Assembly: GCA_031267575.1 (NCBI GenBank)
Contig: JAIRYN010000030.1
Span: 1 to 64,000, forward strand
Reading direction: 5' to 3'
Length of the DNA stretch: 64,000 bases
Source of the DNA: Synergistaceae bacterium
GTDB taxonomy: Bacteria; Synergistota; Synergistia; Synergistales; Aminobacteriaceae
Positions 1,948 through 43,350 of this stretch are shown one piece after another (the stretch's first letter is position 1; the number at the start of each line of letters is the position of its first letter). The notes under the pieces were generated by a model. That model searched no databases, was not told where the DNA came from, and was given only the letters and a program-made list of their open reading frames with translations. The position numbers and the translations under genes are program-made.

Positions 1948-3276
1948 ATGAGATTTTTCCTGATGGGTCTTGTTTCTTGGACATCTTTCGCCTGCCTCTT
2001 TTTATTGTGCCTCCGACGTCAAAGCATCGTTGACGGGAAAGGCATGTGGCGTAAAAGACCTTGGCATGAACGAAGCTATCGAGTTCCAATTTCGTCCGGT
2101 TTTCAATCCGACGGTTTTCAATCCGATCTTCAATGCTTCAATCCGAAATGCTTTAATCCGACCGATCTTCAAAAGGAAGTCGTGGACCTTCGGAAAGCTA
2201 AAAACGACATCGAACGCGAAATGGAAGCGCTTCGCTCCAAAATCGAGATTTTGGAGGCGTCCCATTCCGGTTTTGTAGTTGTTCAAGCTCAACGGGATGG
2301 AGCCCGTTCGGCGAGTGTTGAAGGCTCGAATCCCCAAGCCGAGGTTTCAAAAGGAGAGAAGAAAGAGAAGAATATGAAAGTCGTGTCTATCATCAACTAT
2401 AAGGGCGGCGTGGGAAAGACCACGATTACCTCCAACATCGCGACATATGCCGCCTCCAAGGGAAAACGGGTACTCATGATTGATCTAGACCCCCAGACGA
2501 ACCTGACGCTTTCGTTCATGACAAACGAAAAGTGGATCGAGAGTTATGCCGAGGAAAAGACCCTCAGAAATTTCTTCTGTCCTATCCTCAACGGTACGGG
2601 ACCGACGACGCCTTTGAGTTCTTTGGTCATTCCTCTGAAGATCGAGGACGTCGACCTGAGTCTCATCAGTTCCCATCTGGAACTTATTAGCGTCGATACA
2701 GACCTGGCGATGTGTCTGGGAGGAGGAAACGAGCAAATTCTCAAGTATAATTTCCTGACCGTGCATAACTACCTCCGAAACGCCATCAGAACGCTGGAAG
2801 GAGATTACGACATGGTTTTGATCGACTGTCCTCCAAGCTTCAATACCGTCGTCAAGAACGCGCTTACCGCAAGCGACTTTTACCTTGTTCCCGCCAAGAT
2901 GGATTACCTTTCAACCTTGGGCATAGAGCAGCTCCATCGGAACTCCAATCTTTACGTTGAAAAGCACAATCAATTCGTGGAGGAGGTGGGAAAGCCTTTC
3001 ACGAACATTTTCCCCAAGACCCTCGGTGTCGTTCCCACCATGCTGTCGTTGTACGGCAGATCCCCCATCGCTTCAAATCAACTCTACCTAGGCCAAGTGG
3101 CGCAGAGGGGATACCACCTTTTCCCAGGTTTGAGGGAAAACACCAATATCTACGCGCCGGCCCCCAACGATGGTATTCCCGTATACCTCACTCACAGCGC
3201 CAGCAGCGCTTTGCCCGGCATTATCGCGGAAATAGCGGATCTCTCCGAGGAATTTATCGCGAAGGCGGGTCTATAA
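1948..3276 (+). CDS. ParA/Soj-family ATPase with N-terminal hydrophobic and coiled-coil extension
   Basis: Residues 143-442 are a ParA-type Walker ATPase: deviant Walker A KGGVGKTT (about 152-159), MIDLDPQTN, and Walker B-like VLIDCPPS. The family segregates DNA or positions complexes by ATP-dependent polymerisation or DNA binding. The reading frame starts 142 codons earlier at ATG 1948, which has a strong GGAGG (1936-1940) with 7-base spacing. The extension holds a hydrophobic segment (about residues 2-22), a repeat-rich part built from 15-bp units (2100-2170), and a charged, heptad-like coiled-coil (about 72-108). A conventional start at ATG 2374 is possible but its upstream GGAG is too far away. 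The next gene follows after 3 bp, so the two probably work together. Target unknown; no parS or ParB gene is seen nearby. Confidence 0.85.
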   Translation: MRFFLMGLVSWTSFACLFLLCLRRQSIVDGKGMWRKRPWHERSYRVPISSGFQSDGFQSDLQCFNPKCFNPTDLQKEVVDLRKAKNDIEREMEALRSKIEILEASHSGFVVVQAQRDGARSASVEGSNPQAEVSKGEKKEKNMKVVSIINYKGGVGKTTITSNIATYAASKGKRVLMIDLDPQTNLTLSFMTNEKWIESYAEEKTLRNFFCPILNGTGPTTPLSSLVIPLKIEDVDLSLISSHLELISVDTDLAMCLGGGNEQILKYNFLTVHNYLRNAIRTLEGDYDMVLIDCPPSFNTVVKNALTASDFYLVPAKMDYLSTLGIEQLHRNSNLYVEKHNQFVEEVGKPFTNIFPKTLGVVPTMLSLYGRSPIASNQLYLGQVAQRGYHLFPGLRENTNIYAPAPNDGIPVYLTHSASSALPGIIAEIADLSEEFIAKAGL

Positions 3277-3279
3277 GGC

Positions 3280-3675
3280 GTGGAATCAAAAAAAATTATT
3301 GACGCGATAAAAAAAATATTGACCGACTTGAGCAAGCTCGACGAGCAGCAACTGGAGCAAATCATCGATGGCAGCATGAAGTTCAAATGCGAATTTCCCA
3401 AGGCAAGAGGTACTGACAAGACCAATGGATCTTCCGCGACTTCCGTTTTCGCGCCCGCGTTTAAGGAGTACAAAACGGCGCTTTTCTCCTGTACGAGCAG
3501 AACCGATGCCACAAAGTACCTGAGTGGACTCAAAATGAAGGTTTCCGACCTCAAACAGTTCGCGAAATACTTAAACCTGAAGGTCCCCGCAAGCGGAAAG
3601 GATGCCATTCTGAAGGCCGTCGTCGACCAAACGGTGGGCTTTCGATTGGATTCTCAGGCCGTTTTCCGCACATGA
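3280..3675 (+). CDS. Small SAP-like protein paired with the ParA ATPase
   Basis: 131-residue protein starting at GTG 3280, three bases after the ParA stop, so almost certainly co-transcribed and translationally linked. The N-terminus (about 1-40) is a charged helix. The C-terminal part (about 85-125) follows the pattern of a SAP-like helix-extended-loop-helix module (VSDLKQFAKYLNLKV, then KDAILKAVVDQTVG). Such modules often bind DNA and occur in small proteins next to ParA-type ATPases. A role as the DNA- or cargo-binding partner is an inference from position and pattern; the family is not firmly recognised. No signal peptide or membrane segment. Confidence 0.6.
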   Translation: MESKKIIDAIKKILTDLSKLDEQQLEQIIDGSMKFKCEFPKARGTDKTNGSSATSVFAPAFKEYKTALFSCTSRTDATKYLSGLKMKVSDLKQFAKYLNLKVPASGKDAILKAVVDQTVGFRLDSQAVFRT

Positions 3676-3790: not shown

Positions 3791-4486
3791 TTGTGTCGGA
3801 GAAAATTGTCAGAGAAGAATTTCGGCGACGCTTTTCATGATAGGAATATCGTTAGGAATATCGTGTTGATGCGCCACGGGCGAACGGACTGGAACGACGC
3901 TCACAGATTTCAGGGGCGTACCGACATACCTCTCAACGACAAGGGCCTAGCTCAAGCGGAAAAAACAGCGGACCGCCTGGCCAAGTGGCCGGTGGACGCA
4001 GTGTACACCAGCCCTATGATTCGGGCCTGTCAAACGGCTCAGCCTATCGCTAACCGCCACGGGCGGAAGCCTATTGTCCTCAATGACTTGGTGGAGGTGG
4101 ACTTCGGCCCTTGGGAAAATCAGAGTTTTGAAAACATCCGATGTCAATATCCCGATCTCATGAGAAAATGGATGAAAGATCCTTTTTTCCGCGCGCCAGA
4201 GGGGGCCGAAACCTGGGAGTCCATCCGGATCCGGGCCGAACGAGCGATAGAGGTCGTTTTACGTGAGGAAGGAAAACGCGTTGTCGTCGTATCCCACGGT
4301 GGCATTATGAGGGCGTTGTTTTCGGTGTTATTGGGCCTGGACCCCCACGTCGTGTGGAACATCAAAGCGTCCAACTGCGCTTTGAACGGCATTGAGGTGC
4401 GAAAAGATCAGACTCTTCTGGCTTTTTCCAACGACGAACTTCACCTAAAGGAAGAGCTGACGGATATCACCCTACCTGTATGGTAA
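3791..4486 (+). CDS. Histidine phosphatase (phosphoglycerate mutase superfamily)
   Basis: Cytosolic phosphatase of the PhoE/CobC/GpmB type. The catalytic motif is LMRHGRTDWN with the phospho-accepting His. An Arg in TSPMIRACQTA, a Glu in EVDFGPWE and the second His in VVVSHGG complete the active site. Substrate not predictable; CobC-like alpha-ribazole phosphatase is one option in a corrinoid-using organism. The start is uncertain: TTG 3791 gives 231 residues, TTG 3806 is also possible, and GTG 3861 lies just before the conserved core. The proposed N-terminus includes a 12-bp duplication (3842-3865, AGGAATATCGTK twice), which may have lengthened the gene or its leader. Confidence 0.9.
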   Translation: MCRRKLSEKNFGDAFHDRNIVRNIVLMRHGRTDWNDAHRFQGRTDIPLNDKGLAQAEKTADRLAKWPVDAVYTSPMIRACQTAQPIANRHGRKPIVLNDLVEVDFGPWENQSFENIRCQYPDLMRKWMKDPFFRAPEGAETWESIRIRAERAIEVVLREEGKRVVVVSHGGIMRALFSVLLGLDPHVVWNIKASNCALNGIEVRKDQTLLAFSNDELHLKEELTDITLPVW

Positions 4487-4645: not shown

Positions 4646-5191
4646 ATGGAGCGGGAAAGGGAAAAAGCGCTTTGGTCGCTCTGCCGGGAGGGTAGCCCGG
4701 AGGCCAGAGAAGAGCTCATCATCGCTTATCGCCCTCTGGTTTTCTGGTTGGCGGGTAAATTCAAAGTCTACCCTGCTCTGCGGCAGGATGTGGTTCAGGA
4801 AGGAATGCTGGCCTTGATCTCCGCGGTGGACCGTTTCGCTCCAGAGCGAGACCTGCGTTTTACTACTTATGCCTATCACCGGATCCGAGGGCAGATGATC
4901 AATCTGCTGGACCGATCGGAGCGCCGTGCCCCTATTCCTGTGGACGACGATCAATTGTTTGTCGAGCAGCCTGAGCTACCGGATGAAGAATGGGTGGACG
5001 TAGCCGAGAGCATCGACCACCTAGAGGGAAAAGAAGCCCTAGTGGTTTCCGCTCTCTTTTTCGAGGGCAAGCATCCTTCGGAAGTGGCTGACGAACAGAA
5101 AATCGACGTTTCCCATGTGTACCGTTTAAGGCGAAACGCCGTGACAAAGATCCGGGCGTGGCTCGGACTTGCCGCTTCCCAAACGCCATAA
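4646..5191 (+). CDS. Sigma-70 family RNA polymerase sigma factor (small, regions 2 and 4)
   Basis: 181-residue sigma factor. Region 2 covers about residues 25-95, with DVVQEGMLALISAVDRF (core binding) and RFTTYAYHRIRGQMINLL (-10 recognition). A short acidic linker follows, then a region 4-like helix-turn-helix (about 140-172, HPSEVADEQKIDVSHVYRLR). Regions 1 and 3 are missing or vestigial, so this is an alternative sigma factor of the SigF/WhiG/SigH kind. ATG 4646 is preceded by AGGAGG. It heads the block leading to bamA and lpx genes, so control of envelope genes is a reasonable but untested inference. Confidence 0.88.
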   Translation: MEREREKALWSLCREGSPEAREELIIAYRPLVFWLAGKFKVYPALRQDVVQEGMLALISAVDRFAPERDLRFTTYAYHRIRGQMINLLDRSERRAPIPVDDDQLFVEQPELPDEEWVDVAESIDHLEGKEALVVSALFFEGKHPSEVADEQKIDVSHVYRLRRNAVTKIRAWLGLAASQTP

Positions 5192-5221
5192 AAAACGTCT
5201 TCCCTGGGATAACATAACAAA

Positions 5222-5896
5222 ATGAGGAAAACGCTTGTCGCGATGTGGGAGGCGAACTTTGTGGAAAAACGCATAGCCGGTATCGCTCGGTGGCTTGATC
5301 GGTGTTTGAAGGCGTATAAAACTGGCGCTTTGGAGAGCGCGTTGATGGATGCGGAATGCGCGCGCGCTGACGTCGAACTGCTCAGGAATGAAGTTTGGGA
5401 AAAACTAGAAAAGCAATACACCGTAAGGACACGAAAAAGGGATGCCTGGCTACCGGCCAAAGTGGCTTTTTGGGCCATGACCGTGGTGTTAGCTGCGGCG
5501 ACTCCTGTGGCTTTGCTTGAAAACGTGCCCCGAGGAGAAAAGGCTCTTTGGACAGGACAGGATTCCCCCTCCCTAGAGTGGGTAACTCCAGATGAAAAAA
5601 CGCTGTTGAGTAACCTACGTAAACATCTGAGCGACGCCAACTCCTTTGCCTCCGCTCAGCGATCAGAGGAGAAGGAGGAGAAAATAGACTTTAAACCAGT
5701 GACGGCAACGGCGGTTGCTATGGGAAAATTCGCAGAGAAACCTGCGGTCATCCTGAAGACGCCAAGCCCGGAACCGACGAAGGACTCTGAAGGTCCGGAG
5801 ACCCCCAGAATACCCTACGACCGCATTTTGTCGTTGGTGCGGACGGGAGAAAAGGCGATGAAACAACAGGAGTCGATTATTGTAATAGAAAGATAG
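5222..5896 (+). CDS. Predicted single-pass membrane protein, function unknown
   Basis: 224 residues, not assigned to a family. The N-terminal 75 residues are charged and helical (WLDRCLKAYKTGALESALMD, then alternating acidic and basic residues). A hydrophobic segment at about 80-100 (FWAMTVVLAAATPVALL) is probably a transmembrane helix. The rest is low complexity with acidic, proline- and lysine-rich stretches (about 140-200), consistent with a periplasmic tether. It lies 30 bp after the sigma factor gene and upstream of bamA. A role as an anti-sigma partner is conceivable from the cytosolic domain-TM-periplasmic layout, but nothing in the sequence proves it. Confidence 0.6.
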   Translation: MRKTLVAMWEANFVEKRIAGIARWLDRCLKAYKTGALESALMDAECARADVELLRNEVWEKLEKQYTVRTRKRDAWLPAKVAFWAMTVVLAAATPVALLENVPRGEKALWTGQDSPSLEWVTPDEKTLLSNLRKHLSDANSFASAQRSEEKEEKIDFKPVTATAVAMGKFAEKPAVILKTPSPEPTKDSEGPETPRIPYDRILSLVRTGEKAMKQQESIIVIER

Positions 5897-5899
5897 CTA

Positions 5900-6033
5900 T
5901 AGGAACAATGAAAATAGGAACAATGAAAAATGGGGCGACTTTTGCAAAAGATTTTTCGCAAAAGTAAAGGTCTTTACAAAACAAGGTCCTTATAAAAACA
6001 AGGTCCTTATAAAAATGTGGTCCTTATAAAAAT
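5900..6033. repeat. Two tandem duplications in the bamA leader
   Basis: First a 15-bp unit TAGGAACAATGAAAA twice (5900-5914, 5915-5929). Then a 17-bp unit AAGGTCCTTATAAAAAY three times (5983-5999, 6000-6016, 6017-6033). Between them is TTTTGCAAAAGATTTTTCGCAAAAG, split as two TTTTGCGAAAA-like arms. These fill the whole spacer between the membrane protein gene and bamA. Confidence 0.93.
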
Positions 6034-6054
6034 ATGGAAGGGAGCGATGAGCGC

Positions 6055-7797
6055 GTGACGAGACGTTGGGGAGGATGGCGTTTTGCTGTCCTGTGTTTTG
6101 TCTTGTTGACGAGCCACGGCGTCGCGTGGGCGGCCGATTCGCAGGTGGTTTCCGTCGGGGTGAGAGGAAACGAACAAGTGACGTTGGAGTACATTTTAGG
6201 CGTGGTGGAGACGAAAGCGGGCGACCCCCTGGACAGGGATAGATTGCAGAGAGATATCGAGGCCATCTACAATCAAGGTTTTTTTTCTTTTGTGGATGTG
6301 GACCTGAGCGCAAGCTTGGAAGGAGTGACGGTGGTCTACTCCGTTATGGAAAATCCCGTGGTGGAGGAGATTATTTTTACCGGAAACACCGTCTACAAAA
6401 GTGAGGACCTGATGAAGGAGGTTTTCACCCAGAAGGGCGCTGTTTTCAATCGGGTGTTTTTCCGAAACGACCTTGATCGTATTCAAGAAAAATACCACAA
6501 AGACGGCTACGTGATGGCGCGCGTGGCGGACGTCAACATTCAGGGCGGCTTCATCGAGGTCCAGATTGTGGAACCTCGGGTGGGCGATATTATCATTCAG
6601 GGCAATAGAAAAACGAAAACCTACGTCATTCGTCGGCAGATCAAGATGCAAAAAGGAGATCTCTTCAACGTGATCCAGTTCAGGCATCAGTTAGGGAACC
6701 TCCAGGGACTGGGGTACTTCGAGGATGTCAACGTGGGTTTCGACTCTCCCGATAACCAGATTGATGTCTTAGACATGATCCTCACGGTCAGGGAAAAGAA
6801 GACTGCTGCTATCGGATTCAACATAGGTTATGGGACGGAGACTGGAGTCAGTGGAGGTATTTCCTTCACCGAAAACAACTTGAACGGACTGGGGCACCAG
6901 CTCAACATCGGTTTCGAAGAGGGAGACGAGGCCAGTTATTGGGCCACCTACGCGAGTCCTTATATGGATAAGCGCACCTATGGCTGGCGAGTGGGCATCA
7001 CCTACCGTGATTTCATCGATCAGTATTACTTTCACAACGAGGAAAAACAATTCGAATACGACGAGACCAACTTTGGGATTTCCGCGGGATTAGGCAAGAA
7101 GTTCGGTCGTGAGGAAGAGTGGTCCTGGTTTTTCTCTCTCAACTGGCGGGATGTAACCTACGATAACATCCATAGAGGCATCACGAATTACTACGACGAT
7201 TTGACTATGTGGGACGGCGTGAATTTCTCCGGCGAGTTGCTGTTCACGCTGGATAAACGCGACCCCTACCTGCCCTATTCCAAGGGCATCGTCTGGGAAA
7301 CGACTTTGGAACAGGCGGCGGAGGTGCTCGGAGGCGACTATAATTATCTGAAGTACTGGACTCAGGCCCGTTACTACATGCCTCTCAATCGATACGTGGA
7401 TGGTATTATCGACACGGAGGGCATGTGGGGAGAGGAGAATCCGATCCTTTTGGCGGCCCGTGTGCGGATCGGCTCGTCCACGGTAGACGATCTTCCCGCC
7501 TTTGCTCGTTACACCTTGGGGGGCATGAACACCCTTCGTGGTTATCACAGCCGAACCTTCGAGGGTAGCAACGTTATCTTAGGGAACTTCGAGCTCCGGG
7601 TGCCCGTGCAAAAAAACTTCGAGCTTGTGGGTTTCTACGACGTGGGGAACGCGGCGGATAGCATGGATTGGAGCGAATACTACGACAACTACGGCCTTGG
7701 CCTGCGGGTGAAAACCCCCTTGGGACAGATTCGCCTGGACTACGCTGTGGGTGGCGATGAAAACAGAACCTATTTCGGCTTCGGCCAGATGTTCTGA
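6055..7797 (+). CDS. bamA: Outer membrane protein assembly factor BamA (Omp85)
   Basis: Inserts beta-barrel proteins into the outer membrane. A signal peptide (hydrophobic core AVLCFVLLTSHGVAWA) precedes about three POTRA domains (from VVSVGVRGNEQVTLEYIL to residue ~255) and a C-terminal 16-strand Omp85 barrel. The barrel carries the family motif RGY (TLRGYHSRTFEG) and ends in phenylalanine, as needed for barrel assembly. Three POTRAs is fewer than the five of E. coli. I favour GTG 6055, with GGAAGGGAG just upstream and a clean signal peptide. ATG 6034 (587 residues) abuts the tandem repeat and has no ribosome binding site. Leads into the lpx operon. Confidence 0.95.
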   Translation: MTRRWGGWRFAVLCFVLLTSHGVAWAADSQVVSVGVRGNEQVTLEYILGVVETKAGDPLDRDRLQRDIEAIYNQGFFSFVDVDLSASLEGVTVVYSVMENPVVEEIIFTGNTVYKSEDLMKEVFTQKGAVFNRVFFRNDLDRIQEKYHKDGYVMARVADVNIQGGFIEVQIVEPRVGDIIIQGNRKTKTYVIRRQIKMQKGDLFNVIQFRHQLGNLQGLGYFEDVNVGFDSPDNQIDVLDMILTVREKKTAAIGFNIGYGTETGVSGGISFTENNLNGLGHQLNIGFEEGDEASYWATYASPYMDKRTYGWRVGITYRDFIDQYYFHNEEKQFEYDETNFGISAGLGKKFGREEEWSWFFSLNWRDVTYDNIHRGITNYYDDLTMWDGVNFSGELLFTLDKRDPYLPYSKGIVWETTLEQAAEVLGGDYNYLKYWTQARYYMPLNRYVDGIIDTEGMWGEENPILLAARVRIGSSTVDDLPAFARYTLGGMNTLRGYHSRTFEGSNVILGNFELRVPVQKNFELVGFYDVGNAADSMDWSEYYDNYGLGLRVKTPLGQIRLDYAVGGDENRTYFGFGQMF

Positions 7798-12573: not shown

Positions 12574-12664
12574 GAGGGTTTGGGGCATGGTCGACTAGGA
12601 ATTATAACGTTTTTATATCGGTTATATAAATCGGTTATATAATTTGTGTTCGAGGAGGCACGCG

Positions 12665-31497: not shown

Positions 31498-31594
31498 GAC
31501 TATGATCCATGAACTATGCTTCATGAACTATGATCTATGGACTATGATCTATGAACTATGAACTATGAACTATGAACTATGGACTATGATCCAT
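31498..31594. repeat. 7-bp tandem array, about 13 units, before recA
   Basis: Units GAACTAT, GATCTAT, GGACTAT and GATCCAT alternate through 97 bp; the middle (31550-31580) has four identical GAACTAT units. It follows a TATAAT at 31481-31486 and occupies the leader of recA. The remaining spacer, 31595-31728, shows no gene. Confidence 0.95.
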
Positions 31595-31728: not shown

Positions 31729-32853
31729 TTGTCCAAGAAAAAAGCTCCGCAAAATAGAGAAGAAGTCCTGGAGCAGGCTCTGGAAGATATACGTGAAAAA
31801 TTTGGGCAGGGCTCCATCATGCGCTTGGGGGAAAACGTCAAGCCCAACGTGGAGGTCATTTCTTCGGGAATTTTGCCTTTGGACGTGGCTTTAGGAATTG
31901 GCGGCTTTCCCAAGGGGCGCATTATCGAGATCTTCGGACCGGAGGGGTCGGGAAAAACGACCGTCGCCCTGTACGCCATCGCCGAGGCTCAGAAAGCTGG
32001 TGGCGTAGCCGCATTCATCGACGCGGAACACGCGTTAGACCCGCGGTTGGCGGCGACGCTAGGAGTTAACATCGATTCCCTTTACCTGGCTCAGCCGGAT
32101 AGCGGCGAACAGGCGCTTTACGTGCTGGACACGCTGGTGCGCAGCGGCGCCGTTGATATCGTGGTGGTAGATTCCGTGGCGGCTCTGACGCCCCAAGCGG
32201 AAATCGACGGGAGGATAGGCGAAAGTCAATTGGGGCTCCAAGCCCGATTGATGTCTTATGCCTTGCGTCGTCTGACGTCTATTATATCGAGAACCAATAG
32301 TTGCGTCGTCTTCATCAACCAGCTTCGCGCGCTGATATCGACGGGCTACGGCGCCGGTCCCTCGGAAACCACCACCGGTGGGCGAGCGCTCAAGTTTTAT
32401 TCCTCGATTCGCCTGGAGGTTCGGCGAGGGAAAAAAATCGAAAAAGGAGAGGAAACCATCGGCCACGAGTTGTACATGAAGGTCGTCAAAAACAAACAGG
32501 CGCCTCCTTTCCGCTCGGCCCACACCAGCCTCATCTATGGTAAGGGCATCCCTAAAGGGGTGGCCGTGGTGGATATGGCTGTGGATTACGACATCATCAA
32601 GCGTAAGGGTTCCTGGCTCGCTTATAAAGGGGAGACATTAGGGCAGGGCAAAGAATCGGTCGCTCAGTTCATCGAAAAAAACCCTGAACTGGAGCAGGAG
32701 ATCATCGCCGAGATTATGGCGGCCGTCAATAAGGGAATCGGCTTCATCACTCCCATCCCGGACTCCAAAGAAGGCGAAAAGCCGGAAGACATCGTGGACG
32801 AAGAACTCAACGTGGAAGAGGGAATTTTGGACCTCTCGGAAGATGAAAAATAA
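31729..32853 (+). CDS. recA: Recombinase RecA
   Basis: DNA-strand exchange and SOS co-protease. Walker A GPEGSGKT at residues 70-77, [15 protein letters not shown], the L2-side [10 protein letters not shown] and the [10 protein letters not shown] motif. 374 residues. Starts at TTG 31729 with GGGAGAG upstream. The C-terminal tail is strongly acidic, as usual for RecA regulation. No clear LexA box was recognised in the leader, which is filled by the 7-bp array. Confidence 0.97.
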
Positions 32854-32940
32854 GAGCTAACAATATAGTCTTTGCATAAATATCTATTCATGTCTCTATT
32901 CGAGTGGATATTTATAGAACGCACTATAAAAGCCTTCCAT

Positions 32941-33200
32941 ACTCTGTGAAGAGTGTGCAGGATCAGGTAAAATTCCTGGTCATGAACTTATTTAATTGCT
33001 GTCATCCCTAAAGCTCGAAGAACCACAGCGTAGAGATGAAAGAAGCTTAGACGCGAAGGTGACGAAAAAGTAGTGTAATGCTATGTACCGTGGGCTGCAA
33101 GTGAAAACTCTAAGAACCGGAGAAGAGTAGCGAACTTCTTTGAACACGCAAAAAACGAAGTAGTTCCGAATGTTTTAGTGAAACTTGACAATTCGGGCAC
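32941..33200 (+). ncRNA. Candidate structured RNA leader of the TnpB element
   Basis: A 260-nt non-coding stretch with several stems. ACTCT-GTGA-AGAGT lies at 32941-32954, and GATCAGG/CCTGGTC at 32961-32981 with a 7-base loop. A nested stem at 33117-33169 has CGGA/TCCG outside and ACTTC/GAAGT inside. ATTCGGGCAC (33191-33200) is perfectly complementary to GTGCCCGAAT (34598-34607) beyond the 3' end of tnpB, so it may close a long-range pairing or mark element ends. Not matched to any RNA family I can name; group I intron (IStron) and omega-RNA-like RNA are both possible. Confidence 0.4.
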
Positions 33201-33301
33201 CACCTTGATAGAATCCAGAGGTTAAATTAACCTTTAGATTATTAGCCTTTAATTAGCCTTTAGATTTATTAACCTTTAGATTCGAAAGGAGGTGTGCAGA
33301 G

Positions 33302-34543
33302 ATGCTACAAGGATTCAAAATACATTTATTCCCAACGCAAAAGCAGGAATATCTACTTTGGAAATCGGTTAACGCTTACAGATTGCCTTGGAATTGGGGA
33401 TTGGCTTTTCAAATGAAACGCTTTGCCGAGGGAGAGAAACTTCTCGGTAGTTATGCTTTGAGAGCTGAGTTTAAGAAGTTGAAAACTCAAGAAGAATTTT
33501 CTTGGCTTAACGAAGTTTCTGGAAATGGAACAGTTATTTCTCTCTTTGATCTTACAAACGCGTATAAAAGATTTTTTCAGACGCAAAAACAAGGAGAGAA
33601 GTTTACAAAGCAAACGATAGCTGAAGCCAAGCGTTTAGGGAAAAAATTGACTTCCTACGAAATGAAAGATCACTCCAAATTCAAAAAGAAAAGCCTGTCT
33701 AAACCTGTATTTTCAGTGGTAAATCAGAATCTTTATTTTAAAAAGGGTTGTATGAACCTTGAAAAGATAGGTAAAGTAGAGTGTAAGCATAGCCATAGTT
33801 TTAATGAAGGACTAAATTCCGAGAAATTCTTCAATTCTAGAGTTCATTCTAGAGTTCATTCTAGAGTTCATTGGACAGATAAGAAGTGGATTATTGCCTT
33901 CTCAATGGAAGTTCCAGATCTCAAAGTAGAGCTCAGTGATTTTTCGATGGGAATTGATGTAGGCATTAAAAATCTTGCTGTAGTGAGTTGTAACTCCAAG
34001 AAAATAGTTTTTCAGAACGTGAATAAGACTAGGCGAGTGAAGAAACTCAAGAAACAACTCCAACATTCGCAAAGAGCTTTAGCAAGAAAGAAAAAAGGAT
34101 CTAAAAATAGAGTTAAAGCTATACAGCAATTAAGTTTACGCTACAACAAGATTTTAAATATCCGCCATGACGCTATACATAAAACCACGACTCTTATTGT
34201 AGAAATGCTTCCCAAAAAGATTGTAATTGAGGACTTGAACATTGCGGGAATGATGAAAAATAAACATCTATCAAGTACGATAGCAGAGCAGAATCTTTAT
34301 AAGTTCAGGCAACAAATGGCTTATAAAGCGGAACAAAGAAGAATCAAGTTAGTGACAGCCGATAGATTCTTTCCAAGTTCTAAGAGAAGCTCTAAGAGAA
34401 GCTCTAAGAGATGTTGTTCCTGTGGATGGATTAAAAAAGATTTGACTATTCAAGATAGAATATTCTTTTGTTCTCAATGTGGAATTGAGTTAGATAGGGA
34501 TTTTAATGCCGCAGTGAATCTTGAAAGATATGAAGCAGGCTAA
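33302..34543 (+). CDS. tnpB: TnpB RNA-guided nuclease (IS200/IS605/IS607-associated)
   Basis: 413 residues. N-terminal helix-turn-helix/wedge region (MLQGFKIHLFPTQKQEYLL); RuvC-I Asp219 in GIDVGIKNLAV; RuvC-II Glu310 in IVIEDLNIAGM; a zinc ribbon (CxxC at about 371-374 and CSQCG); RuvC-III Asp400 in LDRDFNAAVNLE. The catalytic triad is therefore intact. No transposase gene (tnpA) is adjacent. The gene is A+T-rich compared with its neighbours, a sign of transfer. Two 12 bp x 3 in-frame duplications are present (33835-33870, coding SRVH repeats; 34375-34410, coding SSKR repeats just before the zinc ribbon) and may impair the protein. AAAGGAGGTGTGCAG provides a strong ribosome binding site. Confidence 0.93.
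   Translation: MLQGFKIHLFPTQKQEYLLWKSVNAYRLPWNWGLAFQMKRFAEGEKLLGSYALRAEFKKLKTQEEFSWLNEVSGNGTVISLFDLTNAYKRFFQTQKQGEKFTKQTIAEAKRLGKKLTSYEMKDHSKFKKKSLSKPVFSVVNQNLYFKKGCMNLEKIGKVECKHSHSFNEGLNSEKFFNSRVHSRVHSRVHWTDKKWIIAFSMEVPDLKVELSDFSMGIDVGIKNLAVVSCNSKKIVFQNVNKTRRVKKLKKQLQHSQRALARKKKGSKNRVKAIQQLSLRYNKILNIRHDAIHKTTTLIVEMLPKKIVIEDLNIAGMMKNKHLSSTIAEQNLYKFRQQMAYKAEQRRIKLVTADRFFPSSKRSSKRSSKRCCSCGWIKKDLTIQDRIFFCSQCGIELDRDFNAAVNLERYEAG
33835..33870 (+). repeat. 12 bp x 3 in-frame repeat in tnpB
   Basis: TTCTAGAGTTCA at 33835, 33847 and 33859, encoding repeated Ser-Arg-Val-His. All three copies are identical, implying recent origin. A second 12 bp x 3 array (AAGCTCTAAGAG) lies at 34375-34410. Confidence 0.96.
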
Positions 34544-34583
34544 TGGAAAGCTGAGTATTTTTTATGGAAAGCTGAGTATCTTT
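34543..34583. repeat. 21-bp period duplication after tnpB
   Basis: ATGGAAAGCTGAGTATTTTT (34543-34562) is repeated at 34564-34583 with two changes. It starts on the last base of the tnpB stop codon. Confidence 0.9.
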
Positions 34584-34654
34584 TGTAGGGTTTCGGTGTG
34601 CCCGAATGAAAATTGAATACTAAAGCATAGGAATTATAACCTTTTTGCATCGGA

Positions 34655-35320
34655 ATGAGGCTCATGATTCTCAAAGTCAACGGCACGACGCTTTTTTATG
34701 AAAAGACAGGTACAGGTTCGCCGATGATTCTGTTGCATGGCAACGGAGAAAACCATCATATTTTCGATAAAGTGTCCGCAAAATTGGAGAACGACTTTAC
34801 GGTCTATTCTGTCGATAGTCGCAATCACGGCCAAAGCGAAAAAACAAGCGAGTATTCCTACAGCGTGATGGCCGAGGATATTTATCGGTTTATTGAAGTA
34901 TTGGAATTGAAGCCGGTTGACCTTATCGGCTTCAGTGATGGTGCTATCGTTGCCTTGATCCTCGCGATGAATCACGGCGAAACGGTGAACAAAATGGCGC
35001 TGTTGGGGGTCAATCTAAACCCGGAGGATTTTACCGAGGAGAGTTATCAGTTTGTGAAAGGCACTTATGAGAATACGAAAGACCCTTTATTCAAACTGAT
35101 GTTGGAAGAACCCCATATCGAGCTGGACGAGGTAAAAAGTGTCAGCATTCCCATTCTTCTTGTCGCCGCGGAAAATGATATTTTCAAGCCGGAAACATTT
35201 ACAAACCTCGCTCATGTTCTTCCCGGCGCAACGCTGAAAATAATAGACGGGCATGATCACGAGAGTTACATCGTCGGGCAGGATTTGTTGTACCCTGACT
35301 TTATCGAGTTTTTCAAGTAA
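34655..35320 (+). CDS. Alpha/beta hydrolase
   Basis: 221-residue alpha/beta-hydrolase-fold protein. Oxyanion motif ILLHGNGENHH, DSRNHGQSEK, nucleophile elbow GFSDGA (Ser), acid Asp in AENDIF and catalytic His in DGHDHESY. Cytosolic, no signal peptide. Substrate unknown. Starts at ATG 34655 or 34664. It stands alone after the TnpB element. Confidence 0.88.
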   Translation: MRLMILKVNGTTLFYEKTGTGSPMILLHGNGENHHIFDKVSAKLENDFTVYSVDSRNHGQSEKTSEYSYSVMAEDIYRFIEVLELKPVDLIGFSDGAIVALILAMNHGETVNKMALLGVNLNPEDFTEESYQFVKGTYENTKDPLFKLMLEEPHIELDEVKSVSIPILLVAAENDIFKPETFTNLAHVLPGATLKIIDGHDHESYIVGQDLLYPDFIEFFK

Positions 35321-43051: not shown

Positions 43052-43104
43052 ACACAAATGGAGCATCCATAATCGAATGGAGCATCCACAATTGAATATT
43101 CTTT

Positions 43105-43275
43105 CGTGATGTTGCATGGAAACATGCTAGTGAAACAGGTGTGAATCCTGTACGGTCTCGCCGCTGTGAGAGAAGAGTTTTTGGCCGGTCGGGTGGGTTA
43201 GAAAAACCACCGAAGTCACTGGGAAACTGGGAAGGCTGCCGAAAACGATGACGCTCGAGTCAGAAGACAGGCATC
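43105..43275 (+). ncRNA. Cobalamin riboswitch
   Basis: Class I-type B12 aptamer. The conserved GAAACAGGTGTGAATCCTGT lies at 43132-43150, followed by CGGTCTCGCCGCTGTGA. GTCACTGGGAAACTGGGAAGGC then leads to the GATGAC...AGTCAGAAGACAGGC (43247-43272) segments. It precedes btuF by 130 nt. Binding of adenosyl- or methylcobalamin would lower expression of the corrinoid importer. Confidence 0.95.
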
Positions 43276-43350
43276 GCGAATGACTGTAGACAGTTCAGCG
43301 AGCAACTGGATGTCCACGGCTTGTTTTGCCTATGCGGGAAGCGAGTTTTG

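What the first reader, a model, noticed from the sequence alone, without database searches (positions are those of the whole stretch)
32941..34607. TnpB gene with an upstream structured RNA and a long-range pairing that spans the gene
Most TnpB guides overlap the gene's 3' end, yet here a 260-nt stem-rich leader precedes the gene, as in IscB/IsrB omega-RNAs or group I-intron IStrons. ATTCGGGCAC at 33191 is perfectly complementary to GTGCCCGAAT at 34598, beyond the stop. The catalytic residues are intact. This could be an unusual RNA-guided element or IStron, or a TnpB domesticated with a new RNA. I could not match the leader to a known RNA class.
Basis: partly seen in the sequence, partly recalled or inferred. 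Interest (0 to 1): 0.65.

Follow-up and report, generated by a model that had tools for sequence, protein, structure and literature searches.

The report
Broken IStron keeping its TnpB gene
The gene and its structured leader are a decayed copy of an IStron, a jumping gene fused to a self-splicing intron, which has lost the intron's catalytic centre and its own guide RNA but kept an intact RNA-guided DNA-cutting gene, while sister copies in the same genome keep the intron and guide but not the gene.

Summary
The TnpB gene (33302-34543), its leader and the long-range pairing are real. They are the parts of one mobile element at 32858-34653: an IS607-type (group B) IStron, i.e. a group I intron fused to an insertion sequence. 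The leader is the start and end of the intron with the catalytic core removed: 233 nt present in sister copies are replaced here by 33 nt of filler, identical to the guide-RNA region of another IS607 element in the genome. The tail has also lost the RAGATH-18 guide-RNA scaffold (75 nt). The 10-bp pairing is the inverted repeat that encloses the ORF in IStrons; alone it is not beyond chance, but sister copies support it. Four sister copies interrupt conserved genes (htrA, a DHH/CBS nucleotidyltransferase, an aminotransferase, an ECF ATPase), and exact removal restores each reading frame, so their introns very probably splice. The window copy lies four bases after the recA stop, where splicing is not needed. 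No new RNA class is needed. What is new is mainly the host (Synergistaceae) and the split between a guide-less TnpB copy and ORF-less copies that keep intron and guide. Most likely this is decay; a guide supplied in trans is possible but untested.

The parts
32858..34653 (+). Whole element: degenerate IS607-type (group B) IStron, 1796 bp, TAACAATATAG...TTTTTGCATCGG
   Evidence: Ends set by sister copies in the same genome; group B ends (after GG, terminal CGG) as described in PMC4227781. 5' flank here is GAGC instead of GG.
32858..33066 (+). 5' part of the group I intron: P1/P2 region and the 5' strands of P3/P4 (also mutated, TGTC-ATCCC for TGGCAATCCC)
   Evidence: 90-95% identical to copies on C25, C76, C27; alignment A1; P3/P4 assignment from the RF00028 alignment of intact copies
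32938..32957 (+). Hairpin P2
   Evidence: Covariation on both sides in 4 of 8 pairs among six copies
32961..32981 (+). Hairpin P2.1
   Evidence: Covariation on both sides in 3 of 7 pairs
33067..33099 (+). Scar: 33 nt filler in place of 233 nt of intron core (P4-3', P6, P7, P3-3', P8)
   Evidence: Filler is an exact 33-nt match to the reRNA 5' flank of the IS607 TnpB element on C28 (L034); sister C15 holds nt 71-303 here
33100..33147 (+). 3' remnant of the intron (P9 region) ending in the GAACAC motif (33142-33147) that marks the intron/IS boundary in IStrons
   Evidence: 88-92% identical to C4, C15, C59, C39 copies; motif as in PMC4227781
33185..33214 (+). Promoter-like site TTGACA-18-TAGAAT with TG, straddling the 5' arm of the inverted repeat
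   Evidence: 11 of 12 matches; similar site at the same place in C4b, C15, C39 and G004. Consensus match only, no transcript data.
33190..33204 (+). 5' arm of the ORF-enclosing inverted repeat
33286..33295 (+). Shine-Dalgarno-like AAAGGAGGTG before tnpB
   Evidence: sequence
33302..34543 (+). tnpB, 413 aa, IS607-type RNA-guided endonuclease, catalytic residues intact; two in-frame 12-nt tandem expansions (33834-33872, 34375-34411)
   Evidence: AlphaFold model best matched by ISFba1 TnpB 8iaz, E 1.3e-27; the expansions fall in low-confidence loops
34592..34607 (+). 3' arm of the inverted repeat; TTCGGTGTGCCCGAA could also fold as the 5' hairpin of a reRNA
   Evidence: position relative to RAGATH-18 in sister copies
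34607..34608 (+). Junction where the RAGATH-18 reRNA scaffold (75 nt in C15, 449-523) is missing
   Evidence: RAGATH-18 at C15 454-512, absent in the window
34608..34653 (+). Residual reRNA 3' flank and right end of the element
   Evidence: 87-90% identical to C15, C39, C4 right ends

Best explanation
The feature is a decayed group B (IS607-type) IStron. An intact IStron of this family consists of a group I intron that splices the element out of host transcripts, tnpB, and a RAGATH-18 guide RNA (reRNA) at the right end whose guide is the flanking host sequence. Here a deletion with filler removed the intron's catalytic core (P7, P3-3', P8), so the leader cannot self-splice, and a second deletion removed the reRNA scaffold, so the element encodes no usable guide. 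It is tolerated because it lies between genes, just after the recA stop. TnpB still has its start signals, an intact frame and its catalytic residues. Shown: element identity, ends, both deletions, intact ORF, intragenic in-frame sister copies. Inferred: loss of splicing and guide function, tolerance because of position, and that the protein is probably in early decay (it could still act with a guide from a sister copy).
For: Leader blocks 32847-33067 and 33100-33216 match multicopy repeats in the own genome that carry about 233-260 nt between them. That segment scores as group I intron (RF00028 E about 1e-9 to 5e-5 in five copies; 52.4 bits, over the cut-off of 50, in relative G004). RAGATH-18 lies in the tail of sister copies and is the guide RNA of IS607 TnpBs (PMC11061315). 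The window gives no hit to either family, even at permissive thresholds. GG target sites, CGG ends, GAACAC motif and inverted repeat match the published group B anatomy (PMC4227781). Sister copies interrupt four conserved genes; exact removal gives continuous proteins, and family models cross three of the junctions without a gap. Complete intron-TnpB-RAGATH-18 elements exist elsewhere (L161 and L133).
Against: The window's 5' flank is GAGC, not GG. The inverted repeat is short and GC-balanced, as described for group A IStrons, not long and AU-rich. Splicing of sister copies was inferred, not measured. The genome is a draft assembly; a misassembly at 33067 cannot be fully excluded, though the 7-nt shared sequence there is too short for a usual repeat misjoin. 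Three of the four interrupted genes were joined across contig breaks by function and phase.
Confidence: 0.93

Rival explanations
1. A split system: the window copy supplies TnpB protein, and the ORF-less sister IStrons (C4a, C4b, C15, C39), which keep the intron and a RAGATH-18 guide behind a promoter-like site, supply guides in trans, so that one guide-less TnpB protects several ORF-less copies.
For: TnpB is the only intact IStron TnpB in the genome. ORF-less copies keep RAGATH-18, and two of them (C4b, C15) have a TTGACA/TATAAT-like site close to the reRNA start. TnpB's closest solved relative by sequence and by predicted fold is the RAGATH-18-guided ISFba1 TnpB.
Against: No expression data. 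TnpB carries two slippage expansions and the element is eroded at both RNA modules and at its target dinucleotide, as expected of decay. The sister RAGATH-18 scores are low in most copies. The C59 copy lost RAGATH-18 although its tnpB is also broken.
Confidence: 0.2
2. The leader is a new upstream guide RNA (omega-RNA like that of IscB) for this TnpB, or TnpB has been domesticated with a new RNA.
For: The leader is stem-rich and lies upstream; TnpB is intact.
Against: The leader is explained piece by piece as intron relic plus filler. No HEARO or other guide match. The same leader sits in ORF-less copies with a full intron core. The core-deleted form is found at one place only in one genome.
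Confidence: 0.03
3. Assembly chimera of an intact IStron, so that the deletions are artefacts.
For: The element is multicopy and other copies break contigs.
Against: The window copy is assembled through; the 33-nt filler joins at 7 nt and about 1 nt of shared sequence, too short for k-mer misjoins; both scars differ from all sister copies.
Confidence: 0.05

Closest known systems
Group B IStrons (BcISt1, CbISt1-4, SrISt1; Tourasse 2014, PMC4227781)
   Same: 5' group I intron, IS607-type TnpB, insertion after GG, CGG end, GAACAC-type motif before the IS part, inverted repeat around the ORF, ORF-less relatives
   Different: Host is a Synergistaceae genome (that survey found only Firmicutes and Fusobacteria); the window copy has lost the intron core and the guide RNA but kept tnpB, the reverse of the known ORF-less copies; the inverted repeat is short
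IS607 TnpB with RAGATH-18 reRNA (ISFba1, 8IAZ; PMC11061315)
   Same: TnpB family, catalytic residues, reRNA right-end remnants, top structural match
   Different: RAGATH-18 itself is deleted; no TnpA; intron leader present
L161 (IMGVR_UViG_3300006226_000691, found here), a complete IStron
   Same: Intron 4804-5230, TnpB 5468-6691 (42% identity, shares the insertion near residues 100-120), RAGATH-18 6714-6774
   Different: All modules intact
dsrA 'MITEtron' of Thiomargarita (PMC4853749)
   Same: Group I intron joined to a mobile element outside the two phyla of the 2014 survey
   Different: No TnpB; MITE-type element

Membership tests
IStron (group B, IS607 type) | Group I intron in the 5' part | tested here: not met
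   Intact in sister copies; in the window only flanks of the intron remain, core deleted. So the window copy is a remnant of an IStron, not a complete one.
IStron (group B, IS607 type) | Insertion after GG, element begins with T, ends CGG | tested here: inconclusive
   Begins TAAC and ends CGG; sister copies follow GG; the window flank is GAGC
IStron (group B, IS607 type) | GAACAC-type motif after P9.2, then ORF region enclosed by an inverted repeat | tested here: met
   GAACAC 33142-33147; repeat 33190-33204 / 34595-34607
IStron (group B, IS607 type) | Long AU-rich inverted repeat (15-34 bp) | tested here: not met
   10 bp plus 3-4 bp, GC-balanced
IStron (group B, IS607 type) | IS607-like TnpB; TnpA often missing | tested here: met
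   TnpB best matched by ISFba1 TnpB; no TnpA in the element; intact IS607 TnpA elsewhere in the genome
IStron (group B, IS607 type) | Self-splicing | not testable with these tools
   Sister copies restore reading frames when removed; P7 absent in the window copy
RAGATH-18 guided IS607 TnpB | TnpB with D-E-D RuvC and zinc ribbon | tested here: met
RAGATH-18 guided IS607 TnpB | RAGATH-18 RNA next to tnpB | tested here: not met
   No RF03064 match in 32850-34700 at E<=5; 75 nt missing
IscB/IsrB HEARO omega-RNA | HEARO RNA upstream of the ORF and an HNH-bearing IscB | tested here: not met
   No RNA match; the protein is TnpB without HNH

The most novel reading that the evidence does not exclude
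IStron modules have been divided between copies in one genome: a ribozyme-less, guide-less copy serves as TnpB source, while ORF-less copies inside conserved genes keep the splicing intron and promoter-driven RAGATH-18 guides that are used in trans. The internal promoter straddling the 5' arm of the inverted repeat could separate the two RNA fates: read-through transcripts carry both arms and fold for splicing, while transcripts from the internal promoter lack the 5' arm and leave the reRNA hairpin free.
Probability: 0.2. Interest if true: 0.6.

Novelty: new member of a known kind. Interest (0 to 1): 0.33.

Why it matters
It places IStrons in Synergistaceae, outside the two phyla of the 2014 survey (later surveys could not be read here), with four copies in conserved genes whose function should depend on splicing. 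It also shows an order of decay: when an IStron lies outside a gene the ribozyme and guide can be lost while TnpB stays open. If the guide-less TnpB is used in trans, it would be a simple natural case for testing how TnpB elements protect non-autonomous copies.

Tried and rejected
Upstream omega-RNA or new RNA class: no Rfam match at gathering or permissive threshold, and the leader is accounted for by sister copies. Pairing as evidence on its own: not beyond chance. An orthologous empty site for the window insertion: the two closest copies of the downstream hydrolase gene lie in other gene contexts without recA, so no empty site was found. Filler as a working guide: only 33 nt of a reRNA 5' flank, without RAGATH-18. 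Idea that only tnpB-bearing copies lose RAGATH-18: C59 fits, but G004 has a truncated tnpB with RAGATH-18. The Science 2024 paper on introns versus guide RNAs is not held, so its survey range is unknown to me.

Full report
What is there. TnpB is an open frame of 413 aa at 33302-34543 with the OrfB_IS605 and TNB domains, over the NCBIfam cut-off for guided TnpB. D219, E310, D400 and the four zinc cysteines are invariant among 13 aligned homologues. An AlphaFold model (mean pLDDT 81) is best matched by ISFba1 TnpB, 8iaz, E 1.3e-27, which is also the best sequence match in the PDB and is the RAGATH-18-guided enzyme of PMC11061315. Two in-frame 12-nt tandem expansions fall in low-confidence loops of the model (179-183, 357-364).

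The leader is an interrupted intron. A search of the own genome with the leader found that its two halves, 32847-33067 and 33100-33216, recur at several places, but that elsewhere about 233 to 260 nt lie between them. That missing segment contains GTTCAACGACTAT...AAGATATAGTC, the P3/P7 signature of a group I intron. Rfam scores the five sister copies as Intron_gpI with E from about 1e-9 to 5e-5, and the copy of relative G004 at 52.4 bits, above the cut-off of 50. The window has none of this. In its place stand 33 nt, AAAGTAGTGTAATGCTATGTACCGTGGGCTGCA, which exactly match the stretch just before RAGATH-18 in another IS607 TnpB element on contig C28. Shared sequence at the left join is 7 nt, so I read this as a deletion repaired with copied filler (inference).

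The tail has lost its guide RNA. Sister copies C4a, C4b, C15 and C39 carry RAGATH-18 between the inverted repeat and the right end; only C4a is over the Rfam cut-off. The window skips from 34607 to 34608 over 75 nt that in C15 hold the whole motif. The C59 copy, with an intact intron and a broken tnpB, has also lost it.

The long-range pairing. It exists as stated, but a 10-bp match between leader and tail arises in 92 of 2000 shuffles, and 74% of shuffles of the whole stretch hold at least one distant 10-mer pair. Across five copies 91.4% of cells are paired against at most 45.7% when slid, with two pairs changed on both sides. In a cross-pairing test the 5' arm binds its own 3' arm best in four of six copies, including C39, whose 12-bp arms are of different sequence. 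This is the inverted repeat that encloses the ORF in IStrons (PMC4227781). Its 3' arm can also form a small hairpin at the position of the reRNA 5' hairpin.

The element and its type. Ends are TAAC and CGG; sister copies follow GG. Together with the GAACAC motif and the IS607-type TnpB this is the published group B IStron anatomy. The window copy deviates in the 5' flank (GAGC) and in the short inverted repeat. Complete elements with intron, TnpB and RAGATH-18 in that order were found in viral contigs L161 and L133. TnpB of L161 shares with the window protein an insertion near residues 100-120.

Sister copies splice, by inference. The 5' flank on C76 and the 3' flank on C4 join in frame to a DegP/HtrA protease; C25 and C15 to a DHH/CBS nucleotidyltransferase; C27 and C59 to an aminotransferase; C39, with both ends on one contig, to an ECF transporter ATPase. 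Pfam or NCBIfam models run across the aminotransferase, ATPase and HtrA junctions without a break; for the DHH/CBS protein no model crosses the join. Three of the four pairings were made across contig ends by function and phase; only C39 is direct. The window copy begins four bases after the recA stop, where loss of splicing costs nothing.

Host. RecA of the window is 73-77% identical to that of named Synergistaceae MAGs and same-family genomes, and 53% to Firmicutes ones. The 2014 survey limited IStrons to Firmicutes and Fusobacteria; a later Science paper could not be read, so I claim only an extension relative to 2014.

How it works. In intact copies the intron removes the element from host mRNA, and TnpB with the RAGATH-18 reRNA cuts the empty site next to a G-rich TAM (established for the families; self-splicing shown for CdISt1 and BcISt1, PMC4227781). 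In the window copy neither RNA function can work from its own sequence (inference from the missing parts). A promoter-like site, TTGACA-18-TAGAAT, at 33185-33214 straddles the 5' arm and recurs in four other copies, and a strong ribosome-binding site precedes tnpB, so the protein may still be made. Whether it uses guides from the ORF-less copies is open; I give this 0.2.

Verdict. The finding is a decayed new member of a known kind.

Noticed in passing
12596-12621: Isolated 25-nt copy of the element's right end (AGGAATTATAACGTTTTTATATCGG) between lpxA-like and rsmG-like genes; probably a scar of another copy.
   Followed up: partly
whole window, e.g. 31499-31591, 33225-33282, 33834-33872, 34375-34411: Unusually many short tandem duplications (units of about 9-26 nt; 76 TRF rows in 64 kb), also inside sister elements; inside tnpB the units are 12 nt and keep the frame. 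Suggests frequent slippage in this genome.
   Followed up: no
43092-43290: Cobalamin riboswitch, 67.8 bits.
   Followed up: no
G000 contigs C9, C25, C28, C36, C47, C52 (loci L002-L005, L034, L036, L037, L042): A second set of IS607 TnpB elements with RAGATH-18, several with broken tnpB, plus four IS607 TnpA genes without internal stops.
   Followed up: partly
L162 (IMGVR_UViG_3300028048_001013) 1215-1574, 3223-3544, 4037-4386: Three group I introns on one 9.8-kb viral contig, all on the minus strand.
   Followed up: no
L064 (G016:C1) around 1400-1720: A group I intron-like 5' part that reaches the P7 5' strand but seems cut off before the P7 3' strand; perhaps another decayed intron.
   Followed up: no
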